Virus record (IMG/VR): IMGVR_UViG_3300007346_000025 | Location: 1-64,000 of that record | Strand: one strand, 5' to 3' | From: a virus | Length of the DNA stretch: 64,000 nucleotides | Shown: positions 1 through 38,485 of the stretch, piece by piece | Layout of the letters: the number at the start of each line of letters is the position of its first letter | Numbering within the stretch: the stretch's first letter is position 1 | The notes under the pieces: model-generated | Database searches by the model: none | The model's input: only the letters and a program-made list of their open reading frames with translations | Told to the model about the DNA's origin: nothing | Position numbers and translations under genes: made by a program

Positions 1-1004
1 ATACTGATAATCCAGTAGCAGGAATTGGTTGTTCTGCAAGTTATGATAATGAAAACAGTATTCTTTATTTTTCTAAAAAAGATTATAAATTAAAAACTGA
101 ATATTCACAATCAATAAGTTATGATAGCAGTATAGATACTTTTATTCATACAGATGAATTTGGATTAAGAACTCCATTTAAAATAGATAGTGATTTTGCA
201 AAAACATATTTTGATGATGCATCTTGGACAGTAAGTTATGATCCTAAGATGCAATACTTTATAAGTTTCCATGATTGGCATCCTGGTTTATACATCCCAA
301 GTAAAGGTAATTTTTCTACTGTACTAAAAAATGGTATCTGGAAACATGGGTATGCATGCAATGACTATTGTAATTTCTATGGTGTACAATATCCATTTGA
401 AATTGAATTACCTTTTATTACCGGTCAAACTGTAACAACATTAAAAGGTGTTGAATACTATTTAGAATGTTATAGAAGAGATGCAAATTATTGTGTGGAT
501 CAATTCCACGTATTAGATTATAACTTTGATAAAGCTGTTGTATATAATTCAGAACAGGTATCTGGATATCTTAATTTAAATATCTTTCCTAAAAACAATG
601 TAACTCTTAGTCAAACTTATCCTAAACTAAATACATCTAACTTACAATCATTTGATATTCTATTTAGTAAAGAAGAGAATAAGTATAGATTTAATCAATT
701 CTGGGATATTACAAAAAATCGTGGAGAATTTCCTATTGGATCAACTTATCCACCAACAGGTCCAGTTATTCCAGGAACTACAGTATTGCAAGGTAACTAT
801 GCTGAAAATAGAATATGGATTACAGAACCTAATGGTTATATTAAACTATTAAATTCAAATGCTGTAGATTATAATAAATCTAATTTACAACGTAAGAAGT
901 TTAGACATTATATTAATTTTTTAACTTTATCTAAAGAAGATTCTAGAAATACTAATATGATTCTAAAAATTATTAATACTAAAAATCAATATTCTCCTAG
1001 ATAA
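1..1004 (+). CDS. Phage structural protein, 3' part (5' end outside window)
   Basis: The reading frame is open from base 3 with no stop, so the gene begins upstream of the window. The internal ATG at 249 is not the true start. The visible ~333 residues are rich in Tyr, Asn and aromatic residues and have no signal peptide or membrane helix. A segment reading DASWTVSYDPK followed by FISFHDWHP resembles a conserved structural protein of crAss-like phages, possibly one at the tail end (muzzle or tail-hub type). That assignment rests on remembered family resemblance and is uncertain. The TAA stop overlaps the ATG of the next gene (TAATG), so the two are probably translationally coupled within the late virion operon. 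Confidence 0.6.
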   Translation, partial: TDNPVAGIGCSASYDNENSILYFSKKDYKLKTEYSQSISYDSSIDTFIHTDEFGLRTPFKIDSDFAKTYFDDASWTVSYDPKMQYFISFHDWHPGLYIPSKGNFSTVLKNGIWKHGYACNDYCNFYGVQYPFEIELPFITGQTVTTLKGVEYYLECYRRDANYCVDQFHVLDYNFDKAVVYNSEQVSGYLNLNIFPKNNVTLSQTYPKLNTSNLQSFDILFSKEENKYRFNQFWDITKNRGEFPIGSTYPPTGPVIPGTTVLQGNYAENRIWITEPNGYIKLLNSNAVDYNKSNLQRKKFRHYINFLTLSKEDSRNTNMILKIINTKNQYSPR

Positions 1005-4000
1005 TGAAAAAAGTTAAAGTAGGAAAGTCTAAGATTCATGGTAATGGTTTATTTGCAAATGAACCAATTAAAAGAGGTGATGTAATTGAGTTGGTACATA
1101 CCATTAGAGAGATTGAGCCAGGTATGATGAAAACAACCCCAACTCTTTTAGGAAGAAATTATAATCACTCTGATGAACCAAATGCATTAAATGTAATTGA
1201 TGGTAATAATAGATATCTTATTGCTTTAAAAGAAATAGAAAAAGGTGGAGAAATTACTACTAACTATAGAAATAATCCAGATCTTGAGCAACCAGATTCA
1301 TTTACTACTAATGATAACTATATTTCATTTGACTATGATGATACTTTAACTACACCAGAGGGATTTAAGTTAGCTCAGCAAATGAATAAGGATGGAAATA
1401 ATCTTTATGTTATTACAGCAAGAGATAAGATTACTCCTGAAATGATTGAAAGAGCAGAAGCTGCAGGTATTCCAAAAGAAAATATTATTGCTGCTGGATC
1501 TGATAAAGAAAAAGTTAGAATCATTAAAGAAAATAATATTAGTAAACATATAGACAACAAAGACTCTGTAATAAAAGAATTGGGAGATAAAGGAGAATTA
1601 TTTTCTCCAGATGCTTATCCGGATTTAAAAGCAGACTTTGTTGAAATGGATTTATCTGAAGAAGATCTAAATAAACTTAAAGAAGGTGGTTTTATTATTG
1701 ATAAATATCCTGGTAAATATAAAAGTTCATATGCAGTTGGTGGTGCAACATCTCCAAAAAATCTAGATCCAGAGCATATGAAAAAATATAAAGAGGGTCT
1801 TAAAATTAATGAGAACTCTATCAAAGCTGGATATAAAAATGGTCTATGGTATCCTCACCATAGTGTAGAAGGTGGTGCTGATACAATTGGATATGGACAT
1901 AAACTTTCTGGATCTAATAATAGTAAGTACTATAAAGGTTTATCAACGGCACAAGTAGAAGATCTACTTGACTCAGATATATTAAAGCATCAAGCTATTG
2001 CTAAAAGTATAGTAGATAAAAAATATGGTGAAGGAACATTTGATAGTCTTCCACAAGATTCACAAATGCTTTTAGTAGACTATGCATATAATGGTGTTCT
2101 AAATCAGTTTCCTACATTTACAAAAGGTGTAGTTGAAGGTGATAAAAACACTATGCTTAAAGAATATAAAAGATACAGTGGAAGTAACCCATTAACTCAA
2201 AGAAATACTTGGACAGAAAATGTAATAAACACTGGAGATTTTAGTATGCCAGTTAATGCACAAGCAAGTGAAGAAAATAGTGGTGGAATACAATCAGCAG
2301 TAAAAAATTATGTTTCTAGTATAGATCTAAATGAATATGCTAAAGGTGGAGATGTATGTCCTGAAGGATATATGAAAGATGAAAATGGTGATTGCATTAG
2401 GATTCAAGATATTCCTGATATAACTGTGACAAATACATATGATGTTAATGGTGGAAAATGGAAAATTAATAATGGTGTTTGGACACAGTTATCAAATGAT
2501 GCTAAAGTAACAAATGCTCACACAAGAGATAGACAATCTGCATATAAGAAAGGTAAATCAGAAAGAGCATTTAGAAATATAACACCTCAAGGATATGGAG
2601 ATCTTCTAAAAAATTTAGAGAGATATAAAAGGTATACAAATAATTTGGGTAGAGATAAAAATGAATTACGTTGGGATATTTCTCCTGAAGGAAAACAAAT
2701 GTATTACAGTATTCCTCGTAGAGATGATATGTTTAGTCTATATTTAGGTTTACCACAGCAAAATAATTCTTTTGTTCCACAATTAATGTATAGACCTACA
2801 AATGAAAAAGATCCAAGTAGTTTATATTATAAGCCTAATTATTGGACAGAAAAAGAAAAACAAGCATTGCTAGATCAGTATTTGCAAATGTCTAAAAATA
2901 ATTATAATAAGAATATTTATAATGAAAGAGATGCAGTATTAAAACCTATTGTAGATAGTTTAAAAAAAGCTGGTGTTCCTGATTGGGATCCACAATACGG
3001 AACAGTATTTGACAATCCTTTAGGAGATTTTACTGTTACAAAAGGTAAAGATGAGTATGGTAATTATATATCTATTTATGATAAAATAGATTTTAATCCC
3101 TTTCAAACAGGTGCAGGTGCATCTATAAATCCTGCAGGTGCAGCATTACAAGCTTATATGCAATTACAGGGTCATAATGTTAATGCAGATACTGAAGCTT
3201 CTTCTCTTTTTGGTGCAGGTAAACCTTATGAAATTTATGATAGAATTTATTATGATCCAAAAACAAAAAAAGTTATAAAGCAAAATAATTTTGATAAAGG
3301 TGGGGAACGTAGAAAGAAAAAATATAAAGAAACGGAGATTCCAGAAGAAGATAAAACCCCATCTAATTACACTGGTGATAAAAAGACTAGAATACAAAAA
3401 GGATATTATGATCCTGAAAATGAGTCTTCTTATATGCTAGAGACACCAGATTTTAGAGTTTATGATCCTAGTTTATGGGGAAAGTATGGTAGAAAGTATG
3501 ATGAATCTCATGACAAACAAGCTTATATTGATAGAAAAAAAAGACAGTACCTTGCATTACATCCTATATTAAATAGAAAGGCTGGTCTTAGTATGGATTA
3601 CTTTCCAGAGAAAGTAGAACAAAACTTTGCAGGTAATTATGATTATGATAAAAATACTCAATTAGTTAAAGATGTTGCTAAAGAAGAAGGTTGGAACCCA
3701 CATAGAAGAGAGTCTTATGTAGATGATCTTACTAAACAAGGACAAAGAATAGTGGGTAATTCTAAATTCGGAAATAAACTTCAAGCAGATTATTGGGCTA
3801 GAAGTTTAGCAGGTTTACAAGAACTTGGAAACTTTCTTATAAAAACAACATTACCTGGAGAACAAGGTGATGTTTTAAAATATAAAATACCAGGACTTAC
3901 AAAAAAAGAACAAAAAGATATTGCAGACTCTAATTTTGGAGCACTTGAGTCTCTTGCTTTTGCAGATATTCCTGGTGCTGTTATTGCAAATGCTGCAAAA

Positions 4001-6478
4001 AATAGAGGACTATCATATGGTTCAGACTATAAAGAATTACCAGGAGTTTTGTCAGGACAAAAAATGCCTAATGTATCAGATCTTGATGCTACAGCACTAA
4101 ATCCATTTACTTGGGCAGGATTAGCAGATCTACCACAAGCAGCTATAAGTTTAGGAAGAGGAGCTGCAAAATTAAGTAAGTCTGGATATACTTTAGGAAA
4201 AGATGCATATGATCTTGGTAAAGATATTTATAGTGCAGGTAGAGGAGATAATTTATATTTTGCTACTTCAGCGGAAGCTCAACTTGCCAGAGACTTAAAA
4301 GAAGCAGGATTATTAGGAGAAAAGGTTGATCCAAAAATATTTGGTAAATATCCTAATCTAGCTCAAACTGCCACTAAGAGAAAGTTAAAAGATTATAATA
4401 CTACATTCAGAGCTGTTGATCCAAATATTGAAAAAGCAGCAACAGAAGATTTAATTGGAATGTATGAAGCAGGTGTTAACATTGAAGATCCTGTAGATGT
4501 TGCAAAATATATGAGCACTCACGTTCCATCTGAACAATACTTCTGGAGAGTAGGTGCAGAAAGTTTAGGTAGCAACCAAGATGCTTTATACACTGCAAAG
4601 TTTCCAAATATAGAAGATGCTTCAACTGGTCTACATAAGTACGGTACATATGTTACTGAAGTAAGACCTCCTATGGATTTTTCAGAAGGAACACCAAGAG
4701 ATTGGTTTAATCAATACTACAGGGATAAGCCTTTTGCTTATGAAAAAGGAATTGAGGAAGGTGCAGGTTGGACCCGGAAACAAGGACCTATTCAGTCAGG
4801 TACTGTTGTTGCACCAGAATTTGCACAATACTGGCCTTATGTTGGAAATAAAGGAGAAAAGGTATTAGAAGCAGTTAGAACTGTACCAACAAAAATGAGT
4901 GCAGAAGCACAAAGACTAAAAGCACTTAGAGACAAAATAGCTGCAAAAAATCTAGAAGATGTTAATGACATTGTTGGTAAAAGGGTAAATGGTGTTACAG
5001 AGTATGTTAGTTCATCTAAAAAATTACCAGGTGTTTCTAATGGAACATTTGCTTATAGAAATCCAACTCCTAGTAAGGTAAGTCCTGCAATTGAATTTAC
5101 AGGACCTATGAAACATTCTTTTGAGGATACTCCTGAAGTATTAACAGCTTTAAGACAAAGAGGTAGTTATTGGGATAATACAGGAATTCCTGGAAAAGAT
5201 CTCTTACATTCAGATATGATTACTTATCATGGAACTTATTCGGGTAGACCTATAGTAGAAGTTAAAATGCCTGATGGTTCTTCTGAGATGTTTTATAAAT
5301 CTTCTGGATGGGCAGGGAAACAAGGATCTGGTGCAAATAATACAACAGAAGGTATGTGGCAAGTATTTGGGGGGCATGCTGATACTCCAAAAACATCTAA
5401 TTGGTTTATTAAAGATTCCGGCTATAAAGATTACTATGGTAGTAAAACTTTTGCTAATATGGCTGAAAATCTGGATAATGCATTAATGCAAAAGTTAAAT
5501 ATTAAATCAGTAGATGAGCTAGATGATGCATTTAATTTTCAAAACAGATTTGGTAATACAGATAGTTTTATACCATCAGATCCAGGTAGGGAATTTGCCT
5601 ATAAAAATATAACTTCTAATAAAGTGCGTCCTACAAATACAGGATTAACTAATGCTGATATAGAAAGAGAGGCTGCTAAAAACATTGAATGGATTACTTC
5701 TCCTGAATATGCAAAAAGAAGAGCTGCTAATACAGGGGAAACTTCAGAAGAAATCCAAAGGAGTATAAATCAGATTATTAAAGATGCTGGTAATGCAAAA
5801 TTTGATTTAAATTCTGATCCACGGATAGCAGACCTCTATGAACGGTCCGGGGTTATGAAAAAGAAAAGATTGTTCCGTCCTGCAAAAGTAGAAGTTTCTG
5901 CTAGTGCTGAACAACCTTTACAAACATTAAGTCATGAAACAAAGCATTTATATTCTCCAGCAGTACATGATAGTAAGAGAGCCTATGATAATTACCCTAC
6001 AATAGGGGATGTCAATGATCCTTATTTTGGTTCAGGTCCTGAACAACAAGTAAGACATTTAAATGCTAGAGAACAAATTTTAGCAGAAAATAATCTTCCA
6101 ATAGATGCTCAACTATCTGAAGAACAAGTAAGAGAATTTGTAGATAAATGGGCAAAAAGAATGAATAAAAATGATTCTAATGTTAAATATCAAGACTATG
6201 ATCAGTTATGGTCAGATGAAGCTGGTAGAATCCAAAAAGAAATGTTAAAAGCAAAATATAATACTGATGATTTAAGTTATATAGGCACTTTACCCTATAT
6301 GCAAAAACTTAGGTTTATGAGTGATTATAAAGATTTACTCACTAGATCTATTACTAATACTTTGAATAAAGCATGGATGACAATTCCTGTAGCTGGAGGA
6401 CTTGAATTAATGAATTCTGAAAGTGTTACACAAAGACATGGTGGATCAATTCATAAACTTAGTAAGTTTATTAATTAA
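1004..6478 (+). CDS. Giant multidomain virion protein: SET-like, HAD-like, GH24 lysozyme, C-terminal HExxH
   Basis: This 1824-residue protein is a mosaic. Residues 1-97 look like a SET protein-methyltransferase domain: GNGLFA near residue 15, NHSDEPN at 54-60, and GGEITTNY at 81-88. Residues 105-195 look like a HAD phosphatase-like domain: DYDDTL with D110 and D112, VITAR at 136-140, HIDNK at 182-186. Residues 258-410 are a T4-type GH24 lysozyme, with E264 a possible catalytic residue and TIGYGHKL at 294-301. The middle is uncharacterised, and H1644-E-x-x-H1648 near the C-terminus is a zinc-protease-like motif. GG motifs (YAVGG, YAKGG, FDKGG) sit at domain junctions. Its place in the late cluster and its lysozyme domain suggest a tail or ejected protein that locally opens peptidoglycan. 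The roles of the SET and HAD domains are inferred only. Confidence 0.75.
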   Translation: MKKVKVGKSKIHGNGLFANEPIKRGDVIELVHTIREIEPGMMKTTPTLLGRNYNHSDEPNALNVIDGNNRYLIALKEIEKGGEITTNYRNNPDLEQPDSFTTNDNYISFDYDDTLTTPEGFKLAQQMNKDGNNLYVITARDKITPEMIERAEAAGIPKENIIAAGSDKEKVRIIKENNISKHIDNKDSVIKELGDKGELFSPDAYPDLKADFVEMDLSEEDLNKLKEGGFIIDKYPGKYKSSYAVGGATSPKNLDPEHMKKYKEGLKINENSIKAGYKNGLWYPHHSVEGGADTIGYGHKLSGSNNSKYYKGLSTAQVEDLLDSDILKHQAIAKSIVDKKYGEGTFDSLPQDSQMLLVDYAYNGVLNQFPTFTKGVVEGDKNTMLKEYKRYSGSNPLTQRNTWTENVINTGDFSMPVNAQASEENSGGIQSAVKNYVSSIDLNEYAKGGDVCPEGYMKDENGDCIRIQDIPDITVTNTYDVNGGKWKINNGVWTQLSNDAKVTNAHTRDRQSAYKKGKSERAFRNITPQGYGDLLKNLERYKRYTNNLGRDKNELRWDISPEGKQMYYSIPRRDDMFSLYLGLPQQNNSFVPQLMYRPTNEKDPSSLYYKPNYWTEKEKQALLDQYLQMSKNNYNKNIYNERDAVLKPIVDSLKKAGVPDWDPQYGTVFDNPLGDFTVTKGKDEYGNYISIYDKIDFNPFQTGAGASINPAGAALQAYMQLQGHNVNADTEASSLFGAGKPYEIYDRIYYDPKTKKVIKQNNFDKGGERRKKKYKETEIPEEDKTPSNYTGDKKTRIQKGYYDPENESSYMLETPDFRVYDPSLWGKYGRKYDESHDKQAYIDRKKRQYLALHPILNRKAGLSMDYFPEKVEQNFAGNYDYDKNTQLVKDVAKEEGWNPHRRESYVDDLTKQGQRIVGNSKFGNKLQADYWARSLAGLQELGNFLIKTTLPGEQGDVLKYKIPGLTKKEQKDIADSNFGALESLAFADIPGAVIANAAKNRGLSYGSDYKELPGVLSGQKMPNVSDLDATALNPFTWAGLADLPQAAISLGRGAAKLSKSGYTLGKDAYDLGKDIYSAGRGDNLYFATSAEAQLARDLKEAGLLGEKVDPKIFGKYPNLAQTATKRKLKDYNTTFRAVDPNIEKAATEDLIGMYEAGVNIEDPVDVAKYMSTHVPSEQYFWRVGAESLGSNQDALYTAKFPNIEDASTGLHKYGTYVTEVRPPMDFSEGTPRDWFNQYYRDKPFAYEKGIEEGAGWTRKQGPIQSGTVVAPEFAQYWPYVGNKGEKVLEAVRTVPTKMSAEAQRLKALRDKIAAKNLEDVNDIVGKRVNGVTEYVSSSKKLPGVSNGTFAYRNPTPSKVSPAIEFTGPMKHSFEDTPEVLTALRQRGSYWDNTGIPGKDLLHSDMITYHGTYSGRPIVEVKMPDGSSEMFYKSSGWAGKQGSGANNTTEGMWQVFGGHADTPKTSNWFIKDSGYKDYYGSKTFANMAENLDNALMQKLNIKSVDELDDAFNFQNRFGNTDSFIPSDPGREFAYKNITSNKVRPTNTGLTNADIEREAAKNIEWITSPEYAKRRAANTGETSEEIQRSINQIIKDAGNAKFDLNSDPRIADLYERSGVMKKKRLFRPAKVEVSASAEQPLQTLSHETKHLYSPAVHDSKRAYDNYPTIGDVNDPYFGSGPEQQVRHLNAREQILAENNLPIDAQLSEEQVREFVDKWAKRMNKNDSNVKYQDYDQLWSDEAGRIQKEMLKAKYNTDDLSYIGTLPYMQKLRFMSDYKDLLTRSITNTLNKAWMTIPVAGGLELMNSESVTQRHGGSIHKLSKFIN

Positions 6479-32611: not shown

Positions 32612-35600
32612 ATGCCTTGTAAGACTCAAATAAAAAACAAACTAACCGATCAAGTATATGATCTCGCACAACCTGGTTTAGGTATGTCTCAAGCTAATGC
32701 TAATGCACTTGCTGCTGATATAAATAGAAGTTTTGGTACACAGGTGGTTAGATTTAATAGTTATGTTACAGATGATCTTCTTGAAATGGATATTAATATC
32801 CCGCAAAGTTTAATAGATGTTTACTATGATAATGAACTTATATTAGAAGCAAAAGAACTAGAACAAAGCATTGAAGATGCAAGAAGAGCTCAACAAGAAG
32901 ATGCTGCTCGTTCAGGTGTAGAATATACAGATCAGTATTTATTTGATAATTCTTCTGCGGTAGAGGTAGCACTCTCCAGAGAAGGTATTGAAAGAAGGAG
33001 AGATATACAAATAGCAGAAGCACTTGGTGAGAAATATAGTAAAGCATTTAATATTCCTTATCAAATTATTACTGAGGGTCAAGCTATAGAAATTTTATCT
33101 GAAAGCCCAACACCATATAAAGGTAATATGTCTTCTTTTTTCTATGGGGACATAGTATACTTTGTTGAAGGTAAGTTTAAAGCCGGTAATGTAGTGCATG
33201 AGTATGCACACCCTTTAGTAAAAGGTATTCAGTTTCAGAACCCAAAGTTATTTGATAACTTATTTAATCAACTTAGTTTAAGTGAAACCGGAAAAAGAGC
33301 TTTACAGATTGTAAAAGAAAGATATCCTGAACTTGGAACAGACACGGTAAGATTTAAAGAAGAAGCCATTGTTACTGGAATAGAATTAGATTCTAATAAA
33401 AAACTGGATGAGACTATCAAAGATGATAATTTATTCCAAAGATTCATTACTAATGTAATGGCAGCTATTAAAAAAGTTTTAAGGGCTTTATCCACTAAAG
33501 TAAATCTTAAATCTTTGGATTCTACCACTACTAGAGATGAATTAGTTGATATGCTATTAGATGAAGACTTTGTAATTGAAGATTTAGAATATCAATTGTC
33601 TTTACTTCCAGAGTTTAAAAAAGAAGCTGAAAGTTTTCTAAATGATCTAGAAAAAGCTAAGAGTAAGGAACTTCTAACTGTAATTGATAGATACTATGAT
33701 AATGTTAACTTTCAACTTAATAAATTACGTAAGTCTCCTGATCAAGTAAAAAGTTTATTAGAAGGAAAAGTTGGAGAAGATATTTTAAAAAATATTGAAT
33801 CTTTTCTATCCCCATATATTGTAAGAAGTAAAAACTTAACAGCTGAGGAAGTTGAAGAAATTATCAATGCTATTGAAGAGAGTGAAGAAGATACTAGACT
33901 TAGAGCAATTGCATTTGTAAACAGTTTAGCTGAATCACAAGTTTATGCTGAAAGAATTAATAATGCCTTAGAAAAATTAGTTAGTACAAAAAGACACCTA
34001 ACACCAGAAGGAATTACCCAGGTAATTTACTATAAAGATATGTTGTCTGGACAATTTGCATTTTTTGAAGAAGCTGTAAAACAGTTAAATATTCCAAGAG
34101 ATAGTTCTATTATTCAAAAAATTCTTTCTGTAAAACAAGTTATCAAAGATGATCTAGAAGAAATAAATGAGATAATGTTTGATTTTTCTAAAGATTTAAT
34201 GAATGATGCTACTAAAAATATGCAGGAAAATTTAAATGCAGAATTTAAAGATAGGATAACTCAAATACTTAAAGCAGACGGTTTTAAAGAGGCTGATATA
34301 AATAAATTTTTAAACTCTGTTATTGATCTGATTGATATAAATAATAAAAAAGATTTTAAGGAAAGTGAACTTAATGCTTTACTTCCAAAAGCTTCTCCAA
34401 GAATAAGGTATATATTGAGAGCTGTAAAAAAATATGTAACAAAACATATTACACCAGATGTTATTCAAGATTTTCTTACAGGATATACACAAGATATTGG
34501 TCAAATTGGTTCTAGTTTGGTTCCACTTGGTAATATTGATGATGTATTAGGTGCTGTATTTAACTTTATGAAAGATAGAGCTGCAGATACAGATGTAGAA
34601 TCTCAACGTCAGTTAAATCAAATGGCTGATAGTTTATATCCATTCTTAGAAAAAGTAGGTTGGAATCCAAATAAAACTACTCAGCTTGGTGACCTTTTAT
34701 TATTTAAGGATACTGTTAAATTAGAAAGAAATGGTGAGTTAGTTGAAAAAGAAGTATACTCTTTTATTGATAAGTTTAAAAACTATAGAGCTGATAAAAC
34801 CCAATTAGAGTATGATCTTAAAAGAGCTAGAGAATTAAAGGATCAAGAACTTATTGATAGAGCAACTGAAGCTTTATGGGATTTTCATGAAAAATATATG
34901 CATAGAACTTTTACTCCTGAAGTGTATAAAGTTTTAAATATGTTTAAACAAGAAAATACTGTTATACATCCAGAAACAGGTGAAGTTTTAACGGTATCTA
35001 AAGAACTTTCTATGGAAGCATACCGAGAAAGAAAGAAAGCTTTAGAAACTTTAAATACTCAGAATAAAAGAGACTTTACAGAACTTGATGATTTGTTTGA
35101 TTACAATGAAGCTAGTGTAGCTAAAATACAGTATGAAGAACTATATAGTGTTATTGAACCAACAACCGGTGAATACAAACAAGGTGATGAATTAAAAAAA
35201 GTATTACTTAGAATTAAGTATAGAAATGATTCTAGAAAATTCTATGACTTTGATGTAAACTATGATAGAGTTCAAAGAGATCTAGATAATTTTATTAATG
35301 TAAGACTTGCAGCTAGAGGTATTACTCTTGATGCTACACCAGAAAGATTTCAAGCAGAGTTAGATAGATATCTACGTAAAAATTTTAGAGTTGCATACAC
35401 TGAAGAATATTATAAAGAATTAACAGCAATTTTTAATGAAATAGCTAGAATTAATGCTAAAGCTTCTGAATCAGATGTATCTAAAAAACTTGCTAGTTTA
35501 TATGATCAAAGAAAAACATATGTAAATATGGTTACTGATAAAGATGGAGAACCTAATGCTCTTAATCTTGACAGAGTTCAAATTGATCAAGTTAAACTTA

Positions 35601-38485
35601 TAGAAGATGAAATTGTTTCATTACAAAGTCAATTTGATAAAGCTTCTGGATTAACTAAAGAAGAAGCTGCTAGGTTACAGTTTTATGAAGTAAGATATAT
35701 TTCTAAAGGTAAAACTAATGAGTTATCTGATGAACAAAAATTAGAGTACTATAATCTTTCTAACAAATCAAATAAGTTTGGTTTATCTTCACAAGAAATG
35801 ACCAATTTAAGAAACTTATATAGACGTTTATCTGAACTTACTGATTTAATCCCTACTGATTATTATTTTGAAGCTTTTAACACAGCTGTAAATGGTGTTG
35901 ATATAGAGGAAATAAATTTTGAAAATGCTGATCAATGGATTAATTCTGATAATGTAGTATTAGCAAAAGCAGAAAGTGAAAGATTTGCAGAATGGTTTGA
36001 TAGAAATCATTATCAAAAAATGGTATATAATCCAGAAATAAATAGATATGAGAAAAAATATTTTAGAATTAAAGTATGGAGTGTATCAAGACCAACTGAC
36101 CCAAGATATTACAAAAAAACAGAAGTAATTAATCCTGCAACAAAAGAAAAAATAGAAGTATCTGGTGTTCCAGTTTCTAGATACACTATATCTAAAATTA
36201 AAGATAAATATAGAACAGGATATAATCCACAAACTAAAAAAGTTGAACTTAAAGTTGGAGTTCATATTAACAATAAAGGACAGTTTTTACCAAGAGAGTA
36301 CAATCCTAGTTTAGAAAATTCAGCATATGATAATAAGTATATGAATGAAAAGTATTATAAATTAAATACTAATAGTTCTACTTATAAATTACTTCAAAAA
36401 GTTAAAGAAGAATTTCTAAAAATTCAAGAAGGATCAGGAGAATATGAAAAATTATATTTAGATCTTCCAAGATTTAGAAAAAGAACTAATCTTGAAAGAA
36501 TTCAATCTGGTGATATACAAAGAAAGGGGGCTGCTTTTAAAGGAACATTGAAAGATGTTAAAGCCTCATTTAAAGCAGCAGAGGATGATCAAGACAAAGG
36601 TTTTAATGCTAATATTGATCCTTCATTTGTTCCTACGGATATGGATGGAAATCCAATATCAAGAATCCCAGTTCGTGGTCTATTTGCATTAGATGTTACT
36701 GAAACTTCTACAGATGTGTTAAGAGCACTTGGAGAATATATGTATTCAATAAATAAAACTAATGCACTTAAAAAAGATGAACCATTGTATTTAGCACTAA
36801 GAAATGTTTTATCTGATCCTAAAAATGCTGCTAAAAATATTAATCAAGCAAGTTCTACTCTTAGAAACTCTGGGTTAGGTGTAATGAGACTTCTACCTAA
36901 AAGTGAAAACCGTAAACTTAGACTTTTTAATGAAATACTTGAAAGAGAACTTTATGGTCAAGTAACTGATGATTTTCAACAAAATTTTAAATGGTTTGCA
37001 AAAGCTAGTGGAAAAATAATGGGTTTAGCAAGTTTATCTTTTTATGCTTTAGATGTTCAATCTGCAATGAAAAACAGATTTGGTATGACTGTGCAGAAAA
37101 TGATTCTTGCAGCTGGAGGCAGATTTATTAATACTAAATCATTAGCTACTGGTAAAATAAAAGCAGTTAAAGCTATGACAGAACTTACAACTTCTGGAGT
37201 ATATGAAAGAGGAGCTAAAAGTTTAAATATGCAAATGATGGATGCATTTGATTTAATACCTGGTAGAGCTCAATCTGATTTTGCACAATCTCTTACAAGA
37301 ACTATCTTATCAGATGCTAGTAATGCAACATTTTTATATGATTTTAGAAGATGGGTTGCAAATGAAGCATCATTAGAAGTTGGATATGCAGTACTGGATT
37401 ACCAAATGATAGAACAAAAAATGCCTAATGGTAAGTCTAGAATGATTCCATATTCAGAAGCTTTTGAAATAGGACCTGATAAATTATTAAAACTTAAAGA
37501 TGGCATTAATCCTGAATATGGTATGACTCAAATTAAACATACTTATGTTGATGGAGAAACCTATGAAGATTTGGCTAAGATGTATAACACAACTGTAGAA
37601 AATCTTAAGGATTACAATAAAGTAGAAAACTTATCTGAGTTAGACCCTGGTACAGAAATAATAATTTCCAATGCTAAAGAATTTAAAAATATACGTAGAA
37701 GATTAGCTGGTATAAATAAAAAACTCAATGGATATATTATAAGTATTGATAATCCGTCATTAAGTAGAAACTTACTATATAAACTATTTACTTATTCACG
37801 TAACTATGCTACGGGAATGTTTTTACAAAGATTTCAATTTGATACAGATAAAGATAATTTCTTTGGAGAAGTATATGACTGGGATTTAGATACTACATCT
37901 AGAGGTTTTTATATTACAGGAACTATTGCAATTATTAATTTAATTAGAGACTTTCAAAAATATAAAGGAATAATGACTGCTGATGAAGTAGCAGCTGTTA
38001 AACAAATGATATTTGAATTTGCATATTTATTCTTACTTGCTGCTGCTATTTATTTTGTATTTGGGTATGATCCTGGTGATGAAGATAGATGGGAAAAATT
38101 AAAAGGAAGAGAAGAAGAATACGGTAAGGCTGGTTGGATGGCTAATCAAATTCTTTATCAATTAATTATGGTAAAAAGAGAAAATGAAACATTTATTCCT
38201 ATACCAGGAGTAGGTTATGATGAATGGACTGAATATGTATCTACATCAACTATTGCTCTAGGACCTACACTTGAAGTTTATGAAGATCTTGCAGTAGATT
38301 TGTATCGTCTCTTAACAAACAGTGAAAAAGCATACTATAAACAAGATGTTGGTCCATATAAATGGCAAGAAAAAGGTTCTGCAAAAATATGGAATGATAT
38401 AGGTAGAGTATTTGGTATTAAAGGTAAAAATGTTTCACCAGTATGGGCAATTAAAAAAGCTGAAATGGCTGAAAATCTTAAATAA
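32612..38485 (+). CDS. Giant virion protein, 1957 aa: HExxH motif, LysM-like segment, C-terminal membrane helices
   Basis: The N-terminal region carries H196-E-Y-A-H200 (VVHEYAHPL), with EEAIVTGIE downstream as a possible third zinc ligand. This suggests a zincin-type peptidase domain. The long middle is Lys/Glu-rich and helical. Residues ~1643-1688 (GETYEDLAKMYNTTVENL, then GTEIIIS) look like a LysM-type glycan-binding repeat. Two hydrophobic segments near residues 1766-1782 (FYITGTIAIINLI) and 1800-1822 (FAYLFLLAAAIYFVFGY) may insert into the inner membrane. Together these suggest an ejected protein that contacts peptidoglycan and membrane during genome and polymerase delivery. This is inference from motifs and from position as the last gene of the late block. 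A bidirectional terminator follows immediately. Confidence 0.65.
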   Translation: MPCKTQIKNKLTDQVYDLAQPGLGMSQANANALAADINRSFGTQVVRFNSYVTDDLLEMDINIPQSLIDVYYDNELILEAKELEQSIEDARRAQQEDAARSGVEYTDQYLFDNSSAVEVALSREGIERRRDIQIAEALGEKYSKAFNIPYQIITEGQAIEILSESPTPYKGNMSSFFYGDIVYFVEGKFKAGNVVHEYAHPLVKGIQFQNPKLFDNLFNQLSLSETGKRALQIVKERYPELGTDTVRFKEEAIVTGIELDSNKKLDETIKDDNLFQRFITNVMAAIKKVLRALSTKVNLKSLDSTTTRDELVDMLLDEDFVIEDLEYQLSLLPEFKKEAESFLNDLEKAKSKELLTVIDRYYDNVNFQLNKLRKSPDQVKSLLEGKVGEDILKNIESFLSPYIVRSKNLTAEEVEEIINAIEESEEDTRLRAIAFVNSLAESQVYAERINNALEKLVSTKRHLTPEGITQVIYYKDMLSGQFAFFEEAVKQLNIPRDSSIIQKILSVKQVIKDDLEEINEIMFDFSKDLMNDATKNMQENLNAEFKDRITQILKADGFKEADINKFLNSVIDLIDINNKKDFKESELNALLPKASPRIRYILRAVKKYVTKHITPDVIQDFLTGYTQDIGQIGSSLVPLGNIDDVLGAVFNFMKDRAADTDVESQRQLNQMADSLYPFLEKVGWNPNKTTQLGDLLLFKDTVKLERNGELVEKEVYSFIDKFKNYRADKTQLEYDLKRARELKDQELIDRATEALWDFHEKYMHRTFTPEVYKVLNMFKQENTVIHPETGEVLTVSKELSMEAYRERKKALETLNTQNKRDFTELDDLFDYNEASVAKIQYEELYSVIEPTTGEYKQGDELKKVLLRIKYRNDSRKFYDFDVNYDRVQRDLDNFINVRLAARGITLDATPERFQAELDRYLRKNFRVAYTEEYYKELTAIFNEIARINAKASESDVSKKLASLYDQRKTYVNMVTDKDGEPNALNLDRVQIDQVKLIEDEIVSLQSQFDKASGLTKEEAARLQFYEVRYISKGKTNELSDEQKLEYYNLSNKSNKFGLSSQEMTNLRNLYRRLSELTDLIPTDYYFEAFNTAVNGVDIEEINFENADQWINSDNVVLAKAESERFAEWFDRNHYQKMVYNPEINRYEKKYFRIKVWSVSRPTDPRYYKKTEVINPATKEKIEVSGVPVSRYTISKIKDKYRTGYNPQTKKVELKVGVHINNKGQFLPREYNPSLENSAYDNKYMNEKYYKLNTNSSTYKLLQKVKEEFLKIQEGSGEYEKLYLDLPRFRKRTNLERIQSGDIQRKGAAFKGTLKDVKASFKAAEDDQDKGFNANIDPSFVPTDMDGNPISRIPVRGLFALDVTETSTDVLRALGEYMYSINKTNALKKDEPLYLALRNVLSDPKNAAKNINQASSTLRNSGLGVMRLLPKSENRKLRLFNEILERELYGQVTDDFQQNFKWFAKASGKIMGLASLSFYALDVQSAMKNRFGMTVQKMILAAGGRFINTKSLATGKIKAVKAMTELTTSGVYERGAKSLNMQMMDAFDLIPGRAQSDFAQSLTRTILSDASNATFLYDFRRWVANEASLEVGYAVLDYQMIEQKMPNGKSRMIPYSEAFEIGPDKLLKLKDGINPEYGMTQIKHTYVDGETYEDLAKMYNTTVENLKDYNKVENLSELDPGTEIIISNAKEFKNIRRRLAGINKKLNGYIISIDNPSLSRNLLYKLFTYSRNYATGMFLQRFQFDTDKDNFFGEVYDWDLDTTSRGFYITGTIAIINLIRDFQKYKGIMTADEVAAVKQMIFEFAYLFLLAAAIYFVFGYDPGDEDRWEKLKGREEEYGKAGWMANQILYQLIMVKRENETFIPIPGVGYDEWTEYVSTSTIALGPTLEVYEDLAVDLYRLLTNSEKAYYKQDVGPYKWQEKGSAKIWNDIGRVFGIKGKNVSPVWAIKKAEMAENLK

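What the first reader, a model, noticed from the sequence alone, without database searches (positions are those of the whole stretch)
1004..2240. SET-like methyltransferase fused to HAD, lysozyme and an HExxH motif in a phage virion protein
The first ~97 residues show SET hallmarks (GNGLFA, NHSDEPN, GGEITTNY) directly followed by a HAD-like domain (DYDDTL) and a GH24 lysozyme (TIGYGHKL). A SET domain at the front of a probable ejected or tail protein is unusual. Together with the lysozyme it suggests a multi-enzyme entry protein that could modify host or phage proteins.
Basis: partly seen in the sequence, partly recalled or inferred. Interest (0 to 1): 0.75.

Follow-up and report, generated by a model that had tools for sequence, protein, structure and literature searches.

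The report
SET methyltransferase module on phage cargo protein
A crAss-like phage carries a complete miniature SET domain, the enzyme type best known for methylating histones, at the front of a giant protein probably packed in the virion and shot into the bacterium, and relatives swap this module in and out at the same position.

Summary
The gene is 1004-6478 (+), 1824 aa; the finding covers only its first quarter. Residues 1-97 are a real SET domain (Pfam E 4e-8; family profile vs MLL1 E 8e-13; AlphaFold2 pLDDT 91.6; structural Z 12-13 to MLL1, EZH2 and viral vSET), lacking the SET-I insert but keeping the GxG, NH and catalytic-Tyr residues, invariant in 18 aligned rows. A HAD-like domain (104-200), a GH24-type lysozyme (about 255-410) and a zincin motif (1644-1648, outside the stated range) follow. 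It is not a chimera: the SET start directly follows the tail 'muzzle' gene in many independent contigs, under purifying selection. In a muzzle-anchored survey (85 loci) 18 post-muzzle genes begin with SET and 57 with another leader; the muzzle tree needs at least 8 label changes, while C-terminal payloads turn over. Neighbours match virion-packaged phicrAss001 RNA-polymerase cargo. Best reading: a catalytically competent mini-SET carried as a swappable N-terminal module of an ejected cargo protein, comparable to virion-packaged vSET of chlorovirus PBCV-1. Packaging, ejection, catalysis and substrate are inferred. I found no paper describing it, though databases hold automatic 'SET domain-containing protein' names for phage proteins.

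The parts
3..1004 (+). C-terminal 333 aa of the tail 'muzzle' protein homologue (gene runs off the window start); its stop overlaps the next start (ATGA)
   Evidence: 80% identical to L007 muzzle; muzzle family profile hits csAssE-Sib 'Muzzle protein' E 2e-104 and phi4:1 gp042 E 2e-99
1004..6478 (+). post-muzzle cargo protein, 1824 aa, carrying SET, HAD-like, GH24-type lysozyme and a zincin motif
   Evidence: single open frame; same junction in relatives
1004..1294 (+). mini-SET domain, aa 1-97
   Evidence: Pfam E 3.9e-8; profile vs MLL1 E 8e-13, vSET 1.5e-8; AF2 pLDDT 91.6 for aa 1-205; VIA Z 12.8 to MLL1 7u5v, 12.1 to vSET 3kma
1040..1048 (+). SET GxG motif, aa 13-15 (G13 and G15 invariant)
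   Evidence: alignment A7
1163..1183 (+). SET NHSDEPN motif, aa 54-60 (N54, H55 invariant; PN variable)
1250..1267 (+). SET EITTNY motif, aa 83-88 (E83, Y88 invariant; Y88 aligns with the Tyr of vSET EITISY)
1283..1294 (+). LEQP, aa 94-97: recurrent flank after the catalytic Tyr, aligns with vSET LSRP
1313..1603 (+). HAD-like phosphatase domain, about aa 104-200 (D110, D112, T138, D184 region)
   Evidence: phrog_4256; 52% identical in L001, 82% in L007; AF2 model; BFVD HAD-like phage proteins
1766..2233 (+). GH24-type lysozyme, about aa 255-410; candidate catalytic E270, then EGGADTIGYGHKL
   Evidence: Pfam aa 290-392 E 0.0019; conserved block in related cargo proteins
5933..5947 (+). HExxH zincin motif HETKH, aa 1644-1648
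   Evidence: related HEIKHILSPA in L085
21491..32581 (+). 3696-aa ORF similar to the phicrAss001 virion RNA polymerase protein gp50 (context)
   Evidence: blastp E 6e-10
32612..38485 (+). 1957-aa ORF similar to phicrAss001 RNAP-associated gp49 (context)
   Evidence: blastp E 3e-9

Best explanation
The front of this gene is a genuine minimal SET lysine-methyltransferase domain, used as a swappable N-terminal module of the cargo protein encoded directly behind the tail muzzle of a crAss-like phage. The protein is probably packed in the virion and ejected N-terminus first; the SET domain would refold after delivery and methylate lysines of a host protein (or of co-delivered phage proteins) early in infection, while the HAD, lysozyme and zincin parts serve entry. 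Shown here: the fold, conserved catalytic motifs, purifying selection, conserved position, and swapping with another leader. Inferred from relatives: packaging and ejection. Inferred from motifs alone: catalysis. Unknown: the substrate.
For: SET homology is unequivocal and the AF2 model matches MLL1, EZH2 and vSET at Z 12-13. S9, G13, G15, N54, H55, A74, E83 and Y88 are invariant in 18 rows, including rows found through the muzzle and not through SET. dN/dS is about 0.09 between the window and L007 and 0.07-0.10 within the L048/L063/L066 group. The post-muzzle position is that of phicrAss001 cargo C1 gp45, detected in virions, part of it lying in the tail, proposed to be ejected N to C (PMC10172136; gene order). 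Window ORFs downstream resemble the virion cargo proteins gp50, gp49 and gp47. Post-muzzle proteins of phi4:1, gp041 and gp040, are annotated from virion MS/MS, and gp040 bears the alternative leader. SET needs at least 8 changes on the muzzle tree. Stand-alone or cupin-fused mini-SETs sit among virion or ejection genes in other phages: PH1 between an internal virion protein and a DNA ejection gene, P-RSM6 beside baseplate wedge genes, MW202744 between stabilisation protein and terL. Precedent: PBCV-1 packages vSET (PMC3946773, PMC7019647).
Against: No activity, substrate or virion proteomics exists for any member that I found. The SET-I insert is absent and the aligned position of a second vSET Tyr (YGDDY, Tyr109) is Pro, so substrate binding must differ. 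The PN of NHxxxPN is not conserved. No sequence similarity to gp45 was found, and the family's muzzle profile does not reach gp44. Passage through the tail would require unfolding.
Confidence: 0.5

Rival explanations
1. The SET domain is active but works before release: it methylates phage virion or cargo proteins during assembly in the producing cell, for packing or stability, and is then carried along.
For: Mini-SET genes of unrelated phages lie among structural and packaging genes and are often stand-alone or fused to a cupin-like domain, not to cargo.
Against: In this lineage the domain is fused to the N-terminus of a cargo protein, the part predicted to leave first, and is swapped for leaders with no sign of being a methyltransferase.
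Confidence: 0.27
2. The SET fold is used as a non-catalytic beta-rich leader for packaging, docking in the tail or starting ejection, interchangeable with other beta-rich leaders.
For: It alternates at one position with a beta-rich domain that has no detectable SET relation; SET-I is missing; PN is lost in several members.
Against: GxG, NH, Glu and catalytic Tyr are invariant over sequences down to 32% identity, which a pure scaffold would not need.
Confidence: 0.18
3. The multi-domain ORF is an assembly or frameshift chimera.
For: Pfam and structure searches see unrelated enzyme families in one ORF.
Against: SET-HAD fusion with the same muzzle junction recurs in L007 and L001, SET alone in at least ten more distinct sequences.
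Confidence: 0.02

Closest known systems
vSET (A612L) of chlorovirus PBCV-1
   Same: Minimal viral SET domain (119 aa), GxG, NH and catalytic Tyr align, Z 12.1; packaged in the virion and delivered at entry (PMC3946773, PMC7019647)
   Different: vSET is a separate protein methylating histone H3K27 of a eukaryote; here SET is shorter, lacks the insert and the Tyr109 equivalent, and is fused to a phage cargo protein for a bacterial host
phicrAss001 gp45, cargo protein C1
   Same: Encoded directly behind the muzzle gene and ahead of RNAP cargo genes
   Different: No detectable sequence similarity; no SET domain reported for gp45; window protein is 1824 aa against 842
Cellulophaga phage phi4:1 gp041 and gp040
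   Same: Post-muzzle virion proteins by MS/MS; gp041 opens with a phage lysozyme domain, gp040 with the alternative leader
   Different: No SET domain detected
Phage mini-SETs (phrog_34170, phrog_28741; Pseudoalteromonas phage PH1 gp49; MW202744)
   Same: Compact SET without insert, in virion gene clusters
   Different: Stand-alone or C-terminal to a cupin-like domain, not leaders of giant cargo proteins
A0A218ML49 'SET domain-containing protein', uncultured virus, 971 aa
   Same: 38% identity to the SET part, in a large protein; probably the same kind
   Different: Known only as an automatic database name; context not examined here

Membership tests
SET-domain protein | Significant SET profile match | tested here: met
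   PF00856 34.1 bits, cut-off 22.4; MLL1 E 8e-13
SET-domain protein | SET fold | tested here: met
   AF2 pLDDT 91.6; VIA Z 12-13 to MLL1, EZH2, vSET
SET-domain protein | SAM-site motifs GxG and NH | tested here: met
   G13, G15, N54, H55 invariant in 18 rows
SET-domain protein | Catalytic Tyr | tested here: met
   Y88 invariant, aligned with the Tyr of vSET EITISY
SET-domain protein | SET-I insert present (common, but not needed for the SET fold; shapes the substrate groove) | tested here: inconclusive
   About 33 residues missing against MLL1, i.e. absent here; not a strict defining feature of the family
SET protein lysine methyltransferase | Methyl transfer to lysine | not testable with these tools
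   Needs an assay
HAD superfamily | DxDxT, Thr/Ser and C-terminal acidic motif | tested here: met
   D110, D112, T114, T138, D184 read from the sequence and conserved in L007 and L001
HAD superfamily | HAD profile or fold match | tested here: inconclusive
   No Pfam hit; alpha/beta model; viral structure matches named HAD-like; VIA rows for this part show only a universal stress protein
GH24 lysozyme | Family profile match above the curated cut-off | tested here: not met
   18.9 bits against 22.3; a relative, L049, passes with 25.6; hence called GH24-type only
GH24 lysozyme | Candidate catalytic Glu and TIGYGH block | tested here: met
   E270 and TIGYGHKL aligned with related cargo proteins
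Crassvirales-like virion cargo protein | Position between muzzle and RNAP cargo genes | tested here: met
phicrAss001 gp45 (C1) family | Sequence similarity to gp45 | tested here: not met
   No blastp hit at E 0.1; same position, not filed as a gp45 homologue
Crassvirales-like virion cargo protein | Detected in virions | not testable with these tools
   Only by analogy with phicrAss001 (PMC10172136) and phi4:1

The most novel reading that the evidence does not exclude
Some crAss-like phages inject a lysine methyltransferase as the leading part of an early ejected protein, and this module is exchanged among phages with other leaders: a virion-delivered protein-modifying effector system in bacteria parallel to chlorovirus vSET.
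Probability: 0.35. Interest if true: 0.85.

Novelty: new variant of a known kind. Interest (0 to 1): 0.64.

Why it matters
Virion-packaged SET enzymes are documented for an algal virus but I found no description for a bacteriophage. If active, it would mean that phages deliver a lysine methyltransferase with the ejected proteins, giving a direct way to ask what protein methylation does in the first minutes of infection. The swappable leader with turnover of the C-terminal payload also offers a natural experiment on how ejected proteins are loaded and diversified.

Tried and rejected
Frameshift or chimera: rejected by recurrence of the junction. Chance motif match: rejected by profile, fold and invariance. 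Sequence search of the lysozyme piece against PDB gave nothing at E 0.1, and the HAD profile gave only spurious repeat and designed-protein matches. Whole-ORF search of phage records and viral contigs found nothing, probably because the payload is too variable. The alternative leader could not be assigned a fold: only weak cupin-like matches, Z under 5. VIA listed a universal stress protein for the HAD part (Z 11.3); I read this as shared Rossmann-like topology. Literature searches for SET domains in crAss-like phages, cyanophages or virion proteins found no relevant paper.

Full report
Observation. The gene behind the finding is one ORF of 1824 aa at 1004-6478 on the + strand; its ATG overlaps the stop of the preceding gene. 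The reported interval covers only aa 1-412. Pfam assigns aa 13-88 to SET (E 3.9e-8, above the cut-off) and aa 290-392 weakly to phage lysozyme (E 0.0019, below it). By sequence alone the SET part already matches PBCV-1 vSET in PDB over aa 4-97 (E 5e-4). The HExxH motif is real but at aa 1644-1648, outside the stated range.

Is it SET? Using 18 related phage domains (A7), the profile hits MLL1 at E 8e-13 and vSET at 1.5e-8, with about 33 residues of the SET-I insert missing. S9, G13, G15, N54, H55, A74, E83 and Y88 are invariant, matching the GxG, NH and Tyr positions of SET enzymes. The AF2 model of aa 1-205 has pLDDT 91.6 and pTM 0.83. Foldseek's top PDB match is vSET, and VIA gives Z 12-13 to EZH2, MLL1 and vSET over aa 1-102. 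Residues 104-200 form a separate alpha/beta domain with HAD motifs; close structural matches are uncultured-phage proteins named HAD-like or XkdF.

Is it one gene? L007 (87% identical SET) and L001 (48%) carry SET followed by HAD at the same place, directly behind a muzzle homologue. Window and L007 are 83% identical over aa 1-236 and then show no similarity; L001 aligns with the window clearly only over aa 1-200. L025 has SET without HAD. The start is therefore conserved and the rest turns over. dN/dS is about 0.09 for the SET part of window against L007 (dS near 1, so rough).

Survey. A scan with the muzzle C-terminus gave 80 loci, the best of 154. With loci found earlier and two duplicates removed, 85 loci have a readable post-muzzle gene: 18 begin with SET (three of them, L115, L118 and L124, after a short helix of the type seen in the other leader), 57 with a different beta-rich leader marked by ITM(Q/K)GV..PG..Y.FPG, and 10 with others, two of which look lysozyme-like by eye. 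In the 79 muzzle-anchored loci alone, 12 have SET, five of them near-identical. On the muzzle tree the SET label needs 8 changes, 7 forced by well-supported branches (quick tree, single support measure). The label is therefore exchanged, though gain cannot be told from loss. Sampling of the best 80 by similarity to this group is not a random census.

Is the gene product in the virion? Direct evidence is lacking. In phicrAss001 the gene behind the muzzle (gp44) is cargo protein gp45, found in virions, part of it in the tail barrel and proposed to be ejected N to C (PMC10172136; gene order). Large window ORFs downstream resemble gp50, gp49 and gp47, the RNAP cargo proteins. In phi4:1 the two genes behind the muzzle, gp041 and gp040, are annotated from virion MS/MS; gp041 starts with a phage lysozyme and gp040 with the alternative leader. 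Lysozyme-type blocks occur in 10 of 66 complete post-muzzle proteins, and diverse HExxH motifs in many. These support a role as entry/cargo protein. The cargo ORF itself has no detectable similarity to gp45, and the muzzle profile reaches csAssE-Sib and phi4:1 but not gp44, so the assignment rests on gene order and on those intermediates.

Other mini-SETs. Compact SETs also occur in Pseudoalteromonas phage PH1, cyanophages P-RSM6 and P-SSM7, Pelagibacter phage Kolga, podovirus-like contigs and gammaproteobacterial contigs. In PH1, P-RSM6 and MW202744 they lie among virion, ejection or packaging genes. This fits either delivery with the virion or action on virion proteins.

Mechanism. I favour an active methyltransferase delivered with the cargo protein (0.5), over methylation of phage proteins during assembly (0.27) and over a non-catalytic leader (0.18). 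The vSET precedent, a SET protein packaged in a virion and linked by circumstantial evidence to host transcription repression (PMC3946773, PMC7019647), shows that the strategy exists. Conserved catalytic residues argue against a scaffold. The missing insert and the Pro in place of vSET Tyr109 mean that substrate recognition must be different, and catalysis is not proven. The roles of individual vSET tyrosines are from general knowledge, not tested here.

Novelty. A SET domain as such, and even phage proteins named SET domain-containing, are in databases. I found no paper on SET in crAss-like phages or as an ejected module (the library is open-access only). I rate it a new variant of a known kind.

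Noticed in passing
L046-L124 post-muzzle genes (e.g. L049:8633-8959): A second, commoner N-terminal leader of about 90 aa (ITMQGV..PGQDYxFPG) occupies the position of SET; AF2 core is confident but only weak half-cupin matches were found. It also heads phi4:1 gp040, an MS-detected virion protein.
   Followed up: partly
window 1004-6478 and related cargo proteins: Post-muzzle proteins carry many different HExxH motifs, lysozymes and an amidase; the C-terminal payload turns over while the start is conserved, as in polymorphic delivery systems.
   Followed up: partly
window aa 446-466 of the ORF (about 2339-2401); L001 ORF 6977-12508: Recurrent short Cys motif KGGxxCPxGYxxDxxGxC, present once in the window protein and repeated in L001.
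   Followed up: no
window aa 214-232 of the ORF (about 1643-1699); C-termini of L007, L040, L041 cargo proteins: Recurrent tail or linker motif like LTEEEIEEYRKGGWIVEE, possibly a packaging or ejection signal.
   Followed up: no
L005:2530-3291, L006:2419-3297, L020:4449-5300, L125:5449-6291: Podovirus-like phages fuse a cupin-like domain (by eye) to a C-terminal mini-SET, next to ejection or packaging genes.
   Followed up: partly
L028:23422-25056: csAssE-Sib encodes a Ro/TROVE-domain protein directly behind the muzzle and tRNA genes.
   Followed up: no
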